From assembly GCF_016888135.1 (NCBI RefSeq), contig NZ_JACSWB010000170.1, positions 1 through 64,000 on the forward strand: a stretch of 64,000 nt of DNA, written 5' to 3'. Under the pieces are notes generated by a model. That model was not told the origin of the DNA, did not search any database, and saw nothing but the letters and a program-made list of their open reading frames with translations. Origin of the DNA: Leptolyngbya sp. CCY15150 (GTDB taxonomy: Bacteria; Cyanobacteriota; Cyanobacteriia; RECH01). This document shows positions 28,261 to 34,057 of the stretch, piece after piece. The position numbers and the translations under genes are program-made. How positions within the stretch are numbered: the stretch's first letter is position 1; every line of letters begins with the position of its first letter.

Positions 28261-28578
28261 AGCTGGCGATCGATTCCGTTTGACTAGTGCTCCTATGGTA
28301 ACAAAATCATTAAGAAATGTTTCGGAACTATTTGAAGGGCGATCGCTCCACCTAGTGATGGGCAGGCATTTCGACGTCGCGCAATGCTCCAAGCCTGATA
28401 AGACGAGGGTTGAGCGGTGACGTGAAAAAACGGGCTGGATAGTGAAATTCAACAGCGGCAAGCTACCGAGGGCGATCGCCGAGCGTCTGAGGACATGCAT
28501 TGGTTAGATTTCAAGACGTTGATACAGGGCACAATAGCGATCGCCCCTTGACTCAAAAAGAGGCGATATACTTTACGT
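28261..28578. other. Intergenic region, left border of the HIP1-free island
   Basis: The 318-bp gap holds the PaO promoter side and the mazEF upstream region. The last HIP1 site before the island is near 28538. GTTAGAT at 28503-28509 fits the integron R' consensus GTTRRRY, but no L boxes accompany it. Confidence 0.4.
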
Positions 28579-28591
28579 ATGCCTGTACGTA
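28574..28591. promoter_or_regulatory. Candidate antitoxin operator: paired TACGTA palindromes
   Basis: TACGTA occurs at 28574-28579 and again at 28586-28591, 12 bp apart, about one helical turn. Ribbon-helix-helix antitoxins usually bind such repeated short palindromes over their own promoter. It overlaps the upstream candidate ATG at 28579, a reason to prefer the later start. Confidence 0.45.
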
Positions 28592-28605
28592 CAAAGAGAA
28601 GAACC

Positions 28606-28827
28606 ATGCATAAGAAGTTAACCATCAGTATTGATGAACAGGTCTACGACGGCCTGTATGCAGTGGTTGGGAAGGGGGGAATTAGTCAGTTTATTGAGGA
28701 TTTGTTACGCCCTTACGTTATCAAGGATGAGCTAGATGCTGCTTATAAGCTCATGGCTGAAGATCAAGAGCGCGAAACAGAGGCTTTAGCGTGGTCTGAG
28801 GCGCTGATTGGGGACAGTGAACCATGA
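28606..28827 (+). CDS. mazE: MazE-like antitoxin (ribbon-helix-helix)
   Basis: The 73-residue protein opens MHKKLTISIDEQVYDGLYAV, a ribbon-helix-helix DNA-binding start, followed by a helix (GISQFIEDLLRPYV) and an acidic C-terminal tail that would wrap the toxin. The ATG at 28579 would add nine basic residues and falls in the operator-like repeats, so I chose 28606. Its stop overlaps the toxin start as ATGA, the usual coupling for type II toxin-antitoxin pairs. It is a RHH-type antitoxin paired with MazF, not an AbrB-type MazE. Confidence 0.85.
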   Translation: MHKKLTISIDEQVYDGLYAVVGKGGISQFIEDLLRPYVIKDELDAAYKLMAEDQERETEALAWSEALIGDSEP

Positions 28828-29147
28828 ACAGAGGTGAAGTGTGGTGGATTAATTTTGATCCGTCAGTCGGTGGCGAAATTAAGAAAGAGCGACCCGCAGT
28901 GATCGTCAGCAACAATGCGGCAAACCGAAATCTTAACCGAGTTCAGGTTGTGCCGATTACGAGCAATGTGTCTAGACTGTACCCAAGTGAAGCAATGGTA
29001 ACCTTGCAAGGTCGTCAAGGGAAGGCAATGGCTGATCAACTGACAACTGTTTCTAAGCAAAGAATGAGGAAAAAGGCAGGGGAAATAACGTCTGAAGACA
29101 TGACTGCTGTAGAATTAGCCATCCGAGTACAACTTGGGCTGAGCTAA
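28824..29147 (+). CDS. mazF: MazF/PemK family mRNA interferase toxin
   Basis: The 107-residue toxin begins MNRGEVWWINFDPSVGGEIK and continues KERPAVIVSN, the conserved MazF strand with the catalytic Arg. The region VVPITSN supplies the second active-site part. MazF cleaves RNA at short sequences and arrests translation when the antitoxin is lost. It overlaps mazE by 4 nt. Its TAA stop lies inside the R'' end of an attC site (29143-29148), as is normal for integron cassettes. This makes mazEF a plausible stabilising cassette of the array. Confidence 0.9.
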   Translation: MNRGEVWWINFDPSVGGEIKKERPAVIVSNNAANRNLNRVQVVPITSNVSRLYPSEAMVTLQGRQGKAMADQLTTVSKQRMRKKAGEITSEDMTAVELAIRVQLGLS

Positions 29148-29228
29148 CGGTCGTGCTCACCGGACACAGGCAACCTTTATAGCTCACCAACCAGATGATA
29201 ACGTTCCGGTGCAGCGCGGTTTTTAGCC
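29143..29228 (+). repeat. Integron-type attC site 1
   Basis: The element is 86 nt. R''-like GCTAAC overlaps the mazF stop; L'' is GTGCTCACCGGA and L' is TTCCGGTGCAGCGC. The L arms pair with one extrahelical base (GCT-CACCGGA against TCCGGTG-C-AGC), the mark of attC folding. R' reads TTTAGCC, one base off the GTTRRRY consensus. It is about 75 per cent identical to the second site at 30297-30382. No integrase gene is in the window. Confidence 0.8.
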
Positions 29229-29246
29229 AGTCCTATTGGAAATGCC

Positions 29247-30257
29247 TCAACGGAAAAGAAAAACATCATTGGAATTCACGTTATTAGGTAAATATAAAGG
29301 AGACTCTAACGCAACAGGCACAAATGTATCGACTTGGATATTAGATCCAAAAGAATCTAAGACAACTACTAACCGTTTCAGGGGAAATGAACTAGCGGAG
29401 AACCACTGCAAAATAGTCTGTGCTTTTGATGGTAATTCATTAGGAATCGGAATCCAAAGACGCTCATCTGAACTCCGTTTAAGCGCATCACACATTGAAA
29501 GCGCATCAACGAGTGCTCCGGCAGCAAGATCTGGTACTGCCACAATATCCTCAAGTTGTCGTGTGTTTAAATCTCCTTCAGTCGTCAAAAACACCAATAA
29601 ACCTTGATGATCAGGCGCATACCTACTAATGCAATGATGAATAACATGACCAGCATGGTTGTGCTTTTTATCATTTGCAGCAATTTCATCTTGATCCGAA
29701 ACCCATAAAATATCTTGTAAAGGCTCAGTTAAACAAGATACAAGTAATGAACCAAGAGATGCCACAAGCAAGAGGCGTTGAAAGGATTTTTTCTTCCATC
29801 CACGTTCTGCAACCACTAACTCAGGTAAAAAACCTGGTGTGCCAGGATCAGCAAAGAGATTATTAATTTTCTTGCTAACTAAGAAAACTATCAAATTGCC
29901 AGGGAAGTTGTTTGCAGCATCCAGAAATGAGGGCAAAGCGCGTAGGCGCATAGCATCATTTAGCGATTTGTATGCCATACGTCGATTGTCAGGAAGGAAG
30001 CGATCTCGAACAGCACTTCTCGATTCCATCCACTTCGCACTTCCACCGATCGCTCCAATCAAAAAGGCAAAAGCTTCATAGTTTGCAGCAGAATGTGATC
30101 CGGAAAAGTCACATGCTACCAAAATCTCTTTTCCATATCGAATGTCAGTAAAAATTGAAGGATCGACCCATTGTCGCTCTGCTATACGCTCACTGATTTG
30201 ATAAGCCAGGGCAAACTTCGGATGATCTAGTTTGTGCCAAACATGCCTATGCTTCAC
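29247..30257 (-). CDS. Hypothetical protein, possible DUF3800-like, in a cassette bounded by two attC sites
   Basis: I do not recognise this 336-residue protein with confidence. An early strand carries an acidic DFSG (ILVACDFSGSHSAANYEAFA), reminiscent of the DxSG start of DUF3800 RNase H-fold proteins. Other features are a C-terminal-half segment WVSDQDEIAANDKKHNHAGH, which could hold further acidic ligands, and LLVFLTTEGDL. No signal peptide is present; a short hydrophobic stretch (LLLVASLGSLLVSCL) lies in the middle. It is reversed relative to mazEF and to the attC orientation. Low GC and no HIP1 sites mark it as acquired. Small unknown genes are typical of integron cassettes. Confidence 0.6.
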   Translation of the reverse strand: MKHRHVWHKLDHPKFALAYQISERIAERQWVDPSIFTDIRYGKEILVACDFSGSHSAANYEAFAFLIGAIGGSAKWMESRSAVRDRFLPDNRRMAYKSLNDAMRLRALPSFLDAANNFPGNLIVFLVSKKINNLFADPGTPGFLPELVVAERGWKKKSFQRLLLVASLGSLLVSCLTEPLQDILWVSDQDEIAANDKKHNHAGHVIHHCISRYAPDHQGLLVFLTTEGDLNTRQLEDIVAVPDLAAGALVDALSMCDALKRSSDERLWIPIPNELPSKAQTILQWFSASSFPLKRLVVVLDSFGSNIQVDTFVPVALESPLYLPNNVNSNDVFLFR

Positions 30258-30296
30258 AATTCATCCTAATTTCATAGTCGGGTATGAGCGAGTCTG

Positions 30297-30382
30297 GCTA
30301 ACGTTCGCGCTCACCGGACACAGATACTCTTTGGAACTCACCGACAACTTGATATTGTTCCGGTGCAGCGGGATTGTTAGAC
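30297..30382 (+). repeat. Integron-type attC site 2
   Basis: The element is 86 nt, the same length as site 1. R'' is GCTAAC (30297-30302), L'' is GCGCTCACCGGACA, L' is TGTTCCGGTGCAGCG, and R' is a perfect GTTAGAC (GTTRRRY) at 30376-30382. The L arms pair with an extrahelical base. The distance from site 1 to site 2 is 1154 bp, a typical cassette length. Confidence 0.85.
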
Positions 30383-30404
30383 TGCATATCAGCTAATTTA
30401 TCAA

Positions 30405-30794
30405 CTATTCTTCAGGCTGCTCAGGCAGTTGCTTAGGCTCTAATTTTTTCGTAACAGAAAAGTGTCTTTTGGCACTTTCTGATCCCATCTTTTCAAACAC
30501 CTGAATAGCAGCTTCTCGTGCAACTGAATGTAATGCTTGTTCGCTCAGAGCATCTAGTCTAGACTCCAGGGCATGTATTTTTGATGAAAGCTCTACTTCT
30601 CTTCTAATTCTATCCTTTTCTGCCTCCTCTAACTTGTCATTTAGTCTTTCTATTAAACGCTTGAATTCGTCCAAGCTCTCTTTAGTGTACTGTCTCAGAT
30701 CCTCAAACTTAACAGTATTTGTAACTAATTCACGATAGAGTTCGGCAACCTTACTAGCAAGCCCTTCAACAGTTTCTTTCATGCCTCCAAGCAT
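30405..30794 (-). CDS. Hypothetical coiled-coil protein, partner of the ApcA-like gene
   Basis: The 129-residue protein has no recognised domain. Residues about 20-85 form a long amphipathic heptad region (LRQYTKESLDEFKRLIERLN and onward), followed by another helix (SALHSVAREAAIQVFEKM region) and a Pro-rich tail (EPKQLPEQPEE). The gene starts 18 nt after the ApcA-like stop, so the two are co-transcribed. I kept ATG 30794: it has GGGGAAG about 6 nt upstream, while the ATG at 30782 would sit directly on GGAGG. An oligomeric scaffold is the plain reading. Function unknown. Confidence 0.65.
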   Translation of the reverse strand: MLGGMKETVEGLASKVAELYRELVTNTVKFEDLRQYTKESLDEFKRLIERLNDKLEEAEKDRIRREVELSSKIHALESRLDALSEQALHSVAREAAIQVFEKMGSESAKRHFSVTKKLEPKQLPEQPEE

Positions 30795-30812
30795 AAGTCT
30801 TCCCCACTACTC

Positions 30813-31520
30813 TTAGCTCACTTTGAATGTCTTTGCCCAAAGCTTATATTCCTTAAGTTCAGTGGAATACTCCTCAATGTTATGTTTCAGTTTCACATTT
30901 TCATCGCTAAGAATTTGGACAAGGTTACTCATTCTCTCAAAAACATCGACATCAGATTCTGCTGCCTCTGTTATTCTCGAATTATAATTGTCTATAGGAG
31001 CCTCTTTGTAAGTATCAACGTTTCCTTCAACATCAAGCATGCAATTAATAACGTAGTCAAAGTAGATATTAGCTTCACTAGCATCTTCTTGAGAAAGAAA
31101 GGTATCTGCAACATCTTTAAGGGAGCGAATACCTTCCGCCATCGCTGAAAGAGAAGTGCCCAGTGATTCATAGGTTTCCTTAACTCCAATCAAGCAAATT
31201 TCTTCGATAACTCTAACATCACCACTAATGATTCCATAGGTGATGATGCGTAGGTAGTAGTCTAAATCTCGAAGGCAAGTAGCAGTTTTCTCTTCACCGT
31301 ATGCGTTACCACCTGGGGAAGTGATATTTGGAAGCTTTTGAAAAAGAGTTTCTCCAGCCTTGCTAATTATGAATTCACGATTATCAGTCAGAATTTCAAT
31401 AATACGAATTCGTTTTGATGCAGATGGGTAAAAGCTTGAAAGCTGAGCTAATTCTTCTTTTGTAGGATAGCGCTCTTGAGCTTCCGCCCTATTTATCAAA
31501 TTAGCAGGCAAACTATTCAT
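30813..31520 (-). CDS. Allophycocyanin alpha-like protein with a C-terminal helical extension
   Basis: Residues 1-163 follow the allophycocyanin alpha subunit almost along its whole length. Matching blocks are LFQKLPNITSPGGNAYGEE, TATCLRDLDYYLRIITYGI, the SGDV turn, GVKETYESLGT and EANIYFDYVIN. Cys82, in ATCLRDLDYYL, corresponds to the bilin-attachment Cys81 of ApcA, and the Arg-Asp after it are kept, so chromophore binding is possible. Residues 164-235 are extra: an acidic linker, then a charged helix (ILSDENVKLKHNIEEYS) not present in ApcA, whose usual length is about 161. The gene is away from any phycobilisome operon, in a HIP1-free low-GC island, and is followed by a coiled-coil gene. 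It may be a light or bilin sensor or a phycobilisome linker. Family is firm, role open. Confidence 0.8.
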   Translation of the reverse strand: MNSLPANLINRAEAQERYPTKEELAQLSSFYPSASKRIRIIEILTDNREFIISKAGETLFQKLPNITSPGGNAYGEEKTATCLRDLDYYLRIITYGIISGDVRVIEEICLIGVKETYESLGTSLSAMAEGIRSLKDVADTFLSQEDASEANIYFDYVINCMLDVEGNVDTYKEAPIDNYNSRITEAAESDVDVFERMSNLVQILSDENVKLKHNIEEYSTELKEYKLWAKTFKVS

Positions 31521-31726
31521 AGAAATCCCTTGAATACCTGTCTTGCTACTTACAACTAACGCGTAGGAGAATTCAATCTATCGTTACTTTAAGTTTAGCA
31601 TCGACTTCATGACGAACGTTGACTGACAGTTTTGCGGCAATCTGACTCTAGCTACTAGAAATTAACTTCTTAAGTATGCCCTAACTGGTAATTTTGCTGC
31701 ATAACAACTTATTAGATCGATCCAAT

Positions 31727-31843
31727 CTGCCTATATGCCTCCTACTAGATGAATATGCAGATTATTTGCCGTCTAATCACCCTCTGAGGGTAGATAGGCT
31801 GCGAGTAATCTGCATAATAGCCCTCTCTAGGGTAGATAGGCAG
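31727..31843. repeat. Nested palindromic element of unknown type
   Basis: Outer arms CTGCCTAT (31727-31734) and ATAGGCAG (31836-31843) enclose ATGCAGATTA (31755-31764) with TAATCTGCAT (31806-31815), which in turn enclose ACCCTC and GAGGGT (31779-31791). GGGTAGATAGGC recurs at 31788 and 31830. The nesting suggests a folded RNA or single-stranded DNA site, or a small non-autonomous element. No flanking direct repeats are clear. Confidence 0.6.
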
Positions 31844-32167
31844 CAAAGATCCGTATATCTTCCATTTCGCCATTTAAGTGCACATGTATTGCTAGCGTTG
31901 TATTTGATACTTGCATGTGGAGCTGTCATGGAGCATCCTCGTCCTAAGAAGCTGCTAGACTAACCTCAGTCTGCTTAACCCGAACTGAGGTTAGTTTAAG
32001 TGGATCTGGCAGCATAGTCGCTACAAAACAACGGCAGCACAACGAGCAGGATTGACTGACTATCGCTGGAGGTGGAAGGATATCCTCTCCTTCCCAACAA
32101 TAATCTGATGCACTACCCCATAACTGTCGAACTCACGTTGGGCATCAGGATGACCAAGCACTGCATC

Positions 32168-32200
32168 AAAAAAGGCTAGCCAGACCATGCCTGACTAGCC
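32168..32200 (-). terminator. Intrinsic terminator of eno
   Basis: On the minus strand GGCTAGTCAGG pairs with CTGGCTAGCC around a short loop, and a run of six T follows. It lies 45 bp past the eno stop. The stem is 10 bp with one mismatch, a strong rho-independent terminator. Confidence 0.85.
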
Positions 32201-32244
32201 CATAACTCATAGATGTTCGGGATGGTTACCAGAGGCGATCGCCC

Positions 32245-34057
<1,813 letters not shown>

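What the first reader, a model, noticed from the sequence alone, without database searches (positions are those of the whole stretch)
30405..31520. Allophycocyanin-alpha-like protein with a novel helical tail, in operon with a coiled-coil protein
The first 163 residues follow ApcA closely, including the bilin-attachment Cys and neighbouring Arg-Asp. The extra 72 residues are a charged helix not found in ApcA, and an adjacent gene encodes a coiled-coil protein. The genes are far from any phycobilisome operon, in low-GC, HIP1-free DNA. A stand-alone bilin protein tethered by a coiled coil could be a light sensor, a phycobilisome-docking protein or a phage or plasmid-borne antenna modifier. I know of no description of this pair.
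Basis: partly seen in the sequence, partly recalled or inferred. Interest (0 to 1): 0.72.

Follow-up and report, generated by a model that had tools for sequence, protein, structure and literature searches.

The report
Antenna-protein head on swappable tail module
A cyanobacterium carries, in a foreign gene-cassette-like island, a light-antenna protein (allophycocyanin alpha) fused to a helical tail that, together with a coiled-coil partner gene, is conserved in two other cyanobacteria, one of which carries a completely different head domain on that tail, so the antenna protein looks like one interchangeable head of an undescribed two-gene module.

Summary
Window 30813-31520(-) encodes an intact 235-aa protein: an ApcA-like domain (1-162; 54-62% identical to canonical ApcA; Cys82-Leu-Arg84-Asp85 kept) plus a helical tail. 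18 bp downstream lies an intact 129-aa coiled-coil gene. Canonical apc genes lie on other contigs.

New here: the tail and the coil form a conserved but very rare gene pair. Of 84,980 GTDB species scanned for short exact motifs, only two others were found. In Cyanosarcina radialis the coil is 66% identical and the tail 45% (44 aa), but the tail carries an unrelated head, weakly similar to the NACHT N-terminal helical domain NNH2. In a Snowella MAG the pair is a decayed fragment. So the ApcA domain occupies an interchangeable head position.

In the ApcA head, the bilin-site segment (68-91) keeps 20/20 ApcA-invariant residues, while 21 of 32 lost invariants lie in the N-terminal helices.

The pair sits in a 3.7-kb HIP1-free, AT-rich island with two attC-like repeats, a PemK/MazF toxin-antitoxin and a dispersed repeat, pointing to integron-cassette-type mobility.

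Best reading: a two-gene input/output module whose head, here a bilin-competent ApcA, is swapped. Function and bilin binding are untested.

The parts
31035..31520 (-). ApcA-like head domain of protein 1 (residues 1-162), bilin Cys82, Arg84, Asp85 kept
   Evidence: Pfam PF00502 1.6e-55; 20/20 ApcA-invariant residues kept in 68-91; model matches allophycocyanin alpha
30813..31034 (-). C-terminal helical tail of protein 1 (residues 163-235) and stop; the conserved part is about the last 44-65 residues
   Evidence: homologous tails in Cyanosarcina (45% over 44 aa, 2e-9) and Snowella
30405..30794 (-). protein 2, 129-aa coiled-coil partner
   Evidence: 66% and 62% identical to partners in Cyanosarcina and Snowella
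30297..30380 (+). attC-like repeat 2
   Evidence: 79% identical to repeat 1; attC-type fold (z -3.7 on the + strand); relatives on cyanobacterial plasmids
29143..29226 (+). attC-like repeat 1, overlapping the toxin stop codon
31696..31963 (.). dispersed repeat (MITE-like) next to the pair, several copies in this genome and a congener
   Evidence: 81-90% identical copies
28545..32234 (.). foreign, HIP1-free, mostly low-GC stretch that holds the pair

Best explanation
The two genes are one version of a modular two-protein system. The constant parts are the C-terminal tail helix of protein 1 and the whole coiled-coil protein 2, which probably dock to each other as a helical bundle. The N-terminal head of protein 1 is the interchangeable input or effector domain. 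In this genome the head is an allophycocyanin-alpha domain that keeps its bilin site, so it most likely binds a bilin, or is bound by phycobilisome-interacting factors, and passes binding or release on to the coil partner. In Cyanosarcina an NNH2-like head takes that place. The pair arrived on a cassette-type island. Shown by sequence: conservation of tail and coil, the head swap, retention of the bilin segment, the foreign island. Inferred: tail-coil contact, bilin loading, the sensor or bait role of the head, the mobility route.
For: Tail and coil conserved side by side in three genomes of different genera. A search with the Cyanosarcina protein hits only the window's tail among 194 genomes. 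The Cyanosarcina head is unrelated to ApcA by profile and by fold and weakly NNH2-like (Pfam 6.6e-6, just under the cut-off; hhalign 0.002). The ApcA head keeps all 20 ApcA-invariant residues in 68-91, while changes concentrate in residues 1-41. Heads of NACHT proteins are generally input or effector modules, and a tetrapyrrole-binding domain (GUN4) is already known in cyanobacterial conflict systems (PMC7159879).
Against: Only one complete homologue with another head is known, from a MAG; a third copy is decayed and its head unknown. The NNH2 match is below Pfam's cut-off and weak by hhalign. Tail-coil contact is not shown; the AF2 helical part has only moderate confidence. No defence-system model matches and no output gene is seen.
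Confidence: 0.45

Rival explanations
1. Antenna modifier: the protein enters phycobilisome cores in place of ApcA, or assembles with ApcB, and the tail plus coil tether or cap it, as other allophycocyanin paralogues remodel the antenna.
For: ApcA-like fold and full bilin segment; pairing residues Tyr18 and Arg91 kept, Asp13 to Glu; paralogues such as ApcD4-ApcB3 form their own antenna (PMC10038336, PMC11614940).
Against: The tail-coil module occurs in Cyanosarcina without any ApcA domain; the N-terminal helices, the alpha-beta contact region, have lost 21 of 33 ApcA-invariant residues; no apcB or linker gene lies nearby.
Confidence: 0.2
2. The ApcA domain serves only as a helical structural head or bait without pigment; the system senses a protein partner, for example a phycobilisome-degrading factor such as a phage-encoded NblA.
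For: Heads of very different origin share the tail; cyanophage Ma-LMM01 and relatives carry nblA (literature found, e.g. PMC4103541); the copy is on mobile-type DNA with a toxin-antitoxin.
Against: The bilin-site segment is the best-kept part of the head (20/20), not expected if the pigment were irrelevant; no defence-gene context in the two other genomes and no PADLOC match.
Confidence: 0.15
3. Non-functional cassette cargo: a fusion carried by a mobile island that is neither expressed nor selected.
For: Extreme rarity; the Snowella copy is decayed, with an in-frame TAA in the coil gene; long branch of the head.
Against: Both window ORFs are intact; the coil pair window-Cyanosarcina has dN 0.24 with synonymous sites saturated; the bilin segment is selectively kept.
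Confidence: 0.15

Closest known systems
Allophycocyanin alpha subunit ApcA (NCBIfam NF058521, Pfam PF00502)
   Same: Whole 161-residue domain, bilin Cys with Arg-Asp, predicted fold
   Different: Extra tail; below the equivalog cut-off; not with apcB; N-terminal helices strongly changed
Red-shifted allophycocyanin paralogues (ApcD4-ApcB3, FaRLiP ApcD5 and others)
   Same: Extra allophycocyanin-type subunits outside the main apc operon
   Different: Those are encoded with a beta partner and work as antennae; no tail or coiled-coil partner
smURFP, an engineered allophycocyanin-alpha derivative
   Same: An ApcA domain working without ApcB (PMC10338489)
   Different: Engineered homodimer that aligns only from residue 34 of this protein; no tail
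NACHT N-terminal helical domain NNH2 (Pfam PF22734)
   Same: The Cyanosarcina homologue's head is weakly similar to it, and a tail follows a helical head
   Different: The window protein has no NNH2 domain; neither protein has a NACHT NTPase
Integron gene cassettes / attC clusters without integrase
   Same: Two ~84-nt repeats with GCTAAC / GTTAG-type ends, paired inner boxes with a bulge, next to toxin-antitoxin and unknown genes
   Different: No integrase searched for; the far-side repeat of the pair is missing or degraded; two units have genes facing against the repeat orientation

Membership tests
Allophycocyanin alpha (ApcA) | Phycobilisome-protein domain (PF00502) with bilin Cys and Arg-Asp | tested here: met
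Allophycocyanin alpha (ApcA) | Score above the ApcA equivalog cut-off | tested here: not met
   212.5 bits against 270
Allophycocyanin alpha (ApcA) | Encoded with apcB / apc operon, about 161 aa | tested here: not met
   235 aa; other phycobilisome-family genes all on other contigs
Allophycocyanin alpha (ApcA) | Covalent phycocyanobilin and assembly with ApcB | not testable with these tools
   Cys and segment kept; alpha-beta helices changed
NNH2 / NACHT-type system | NNH2 domain in the window protein | tested here: not met
   no match
NNH2 / NACHT-type system | NNH2 domain in the Cyanosarcina homologue | tested here: inconclusive
   26.3 bits against cut-off 27, E 6.6e-6; hhalign E 0.002, probability 14%
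Known anti-phage defence system | Match to a PADLOC model | tested here: not met
   no hit for protein 1; only weak coiled-coil hits for protein 2
Integron cassette array | attC-type sites (R''/R' ends, spacer, inner boxes with extrahelical base) | tested here: met
   two in the window and relatives on cyanobacterial plasmids; judged by eye and fold, not by an attC model
Integron cassette array | attC site directly after the pair on its far side | tested here: not met
   simple scan of 28401-32300 found none beyond 30380
Integron cassette array | Integron integrase in the genome | not tested

The most novel reading that the evidence does not exclude
A light-harvesting protein has been recruited as the exchangeable sensor or bait of an undescribed, cassette-borne two-gene signalling or immunity module (variable head with conserved tail, plus conserved coiled coil), a phycobiliprotein with a non-antenna, surveillance-type role.
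Probability: 0.25. Interest if true: 0.85.

Novelty: new variant of a known kind. Interest (0 to 1): 0.6.

Why it matters
As far as I know, natural phycobiliproteins are known almost only as antenna parts. A natural ApcA domain that keeps its pigment site but serves as the swappable head of a two-gene module would show that antenna proteins can be co-opted for sensing or surveillance. It would be a natural counterpart to the engineered fluorescent protein smURFP and a small, easily expressed test object. The attC-like repeats would place such inventions on integron-type cassettes in cyanobacteria.

Tried and rejected
A direct scan of genome contigs with the ApcA-type protein found nothing, because of its exact-peptide patterns; the coil alignment was the productive query. 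Phage and viral collections: no relatives of either protein. Plasmids: only ordinary phycobilisome proteins, no tail or coil. Weak coil or tail matches in distant genomes (about 20 bits) were treated as coiled-coil background. A degenerate phycobilisome-like protein in the Snowella genome (L119) was checked as a possible second case and set aside. A shared fold of the NNH2-like and ApcA heads: rejected. A recent duplication of the genome's own apcA: unlikely, since the head is closer to ApcA of other families (up to 62%) than to its own (54%) and sits on a long, unplaced branch. Synteny with two congeners and one same-family genome could not be closed, because the congener's contig ends at the dispersed repeat.

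Full report
Observation. Protein 1 (235 aa) is an ApcA-derived domain with a tail. It matches Pfam PF00502 at 1.6e-55, its best NCBIfam model is ApcA but below the equivalog cut-off, and its closest solved structures are allophycocyanin alpha chains. Protein 2 (129 aa) is a coiled coil without a trustworthy family match. The genome has its canonical apcE-apcA-apcB, apcD, apcF and cpc-type genes on other contigs.

Relatives. A phylum-wide search with the coil protein found one strong relative, in a Snowella MAG. A genome-contig scan with the alignment of the two found that MAG again and Cyanosarcina radialis HA8281-LM2 (also a MAG), out of 84,980 species; that scan sees only genomes carrying one of two exact peptide motifs. 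In Snowella the coil gene has an in-frame TAA and only the end of the tail is present before the contig ends. In Cyanosarcina both genes are intact. The coil is 66% identical and the preceding 225-aa protein ends with a homologous tail (45% over 44 aa, BLASTP 2e-9), while its first ~160 residues are unrelated to ApcA. They are weakly similar to NNH2, the NACHT N-terminal helical domain 2 (hhalign E 0.002). A predicted structure of that protein (mean pLDDT 74.5) has no phycobiliprotein match. A search of 194 cyanobacterial genomes with the Cyanosarcina protein hits only the window's tail. In all three genomes the tail and coil genes are 18-27 bp apart and in the same frame. Two congeners and one same-family genome lack the pair.

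What the ApcA head keeps and loses. In 31 canonical ApcAs 97 columns are invariant; 32 of these differ here. 21 of the 33 invariant columns in residues 1-41 are changed, against 11 of 64 in the rest (Fisher 8e-6). In 68-91, which carries Cys82, none of 20 is changed (hypergeometric 1e-4; columns). These regions were chosen after seeing the data, so the p-values are descriptive. The N-terminal helices are, by general knowledge of phycobiliproteins, the alpha-beta contact region. smURFP, which binds bilin as a homodimer (PMC10338489), aligns only from residue 34. Some pairing residues remain (Tyr18, Arg91; Asp13 to Glu), so ApcB binding is open. The head sits on a long branch within ApcA, its position unresolved.

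Setting. GC falls to 39-44% over roughly 29.0-31.9 kb, and there is no HIP1 site between those at 28537 and 32235. The stretch holds a PemK/MazF-type toxin-antitoxin, a 336-aa protein with relatives on rhizobial and Burkholderiales plasmids, the pair, and a dispersed repeat at 31696-31963. Two 84-nt direct repeats, 29143-29226 and 30297-30380, are 79% identical. They begin GCTAACG, end in TTAGCC / TTAGAC, and fold into an outer stem, an unpaired spacer and an inner stem with a bulge. The fold is clearly better than shuffles only for the second copy on the + strand (z -3.7; the others -1.7 to -2.0). Relatives occur on plasmids of Chroococcidiopsis, Kovacikia and Calothrix. This is the layout of integron attC sites, and toxin-antitoxin cassettes are usual in chromosomal integrons (general knowledge). 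I infer cassette-type mobility; an integrase was not searched for, and no intact site follows the pair on its far side.

Mechanism. The part under conservation is the tail plus the coil, so these two most likely touch and form the output or scaffold; the head is exchanged. A head that keeps its full bilin segment while its ApcB-facing helices drift fits a pigment-binding or antenna-mimicking domain working outside the phycobilisome. An AF2 model of the two proteins as encoded in one reading frame (stops between them read through) recovers the ApcA fold but gives only moderate confidence for the helical part, so tail-coil contact is inference. Whether the signal is light, bilin supply, phycobilisome state or an invader's factor cannot be told.

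Comparison. No paper found in the searched library describes such a pair. Antenna paralogues such as ApcD4-ApcB3 (PMC10038336, PMC11614940) are precedents for extra allophycocyanins but work as antennae. GUN4 in cyanobacterial conflict systems (PMC7159879) is a precedent for a tetrapyrrole-binding domain in a surveillance-type system.

Verdict. Real, rare, and conserved as a tail-coil module with an exchangeable head; function open. The main weakness is that the head swap rests on one complete homologue, itself from a MAG.

Noticed in passing
window 29143-29226 and 30297-30380: attC-like repeats, also found on Chroococcidiopsis, Kovacikia and Calothrix plasmids; suggests integron-type cassettes in cyanobacteria.
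   Followed up: partly
window 28579-29147: PemK/MazF-type toxin with its antitoxin; the toxin's stop codon lies inside the first attC-like repeat, similar at DNA level (65-68%) to copies on Acidithiobacillus and Limnohabitans plasmids.
   Followed up: partly
window 29247-30257: 336-aa protein without a Pfam family, with 28-32% identical relatives on large plasmids of rhizobia, Caballeronia and Paraburkholderia.
   Followed up: partly
window 31696-31963: Dispersed repeat (about 250 bp, 81-90% identical copies in this genome and a congener) with internal inverted repeats; a congener's contig breaks in it.
   Followed up: no
window 30795-30812; L033 7983-8000; L015 157-183: The tail gene and the coil gene are in the same reading frame in all three genomes, with 18-27 bp between them; could be chance (about 1 in 9 beyond the first) or a trace of a split fusion.
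   Followed up: no
L119 6350-6835 (Snowella MAG): Divergent stand-alone phycobilisome-domain protein without the usual bilin Cys, divergently oriented next to a small protein with likely membrane helices.
   Followed up: partly
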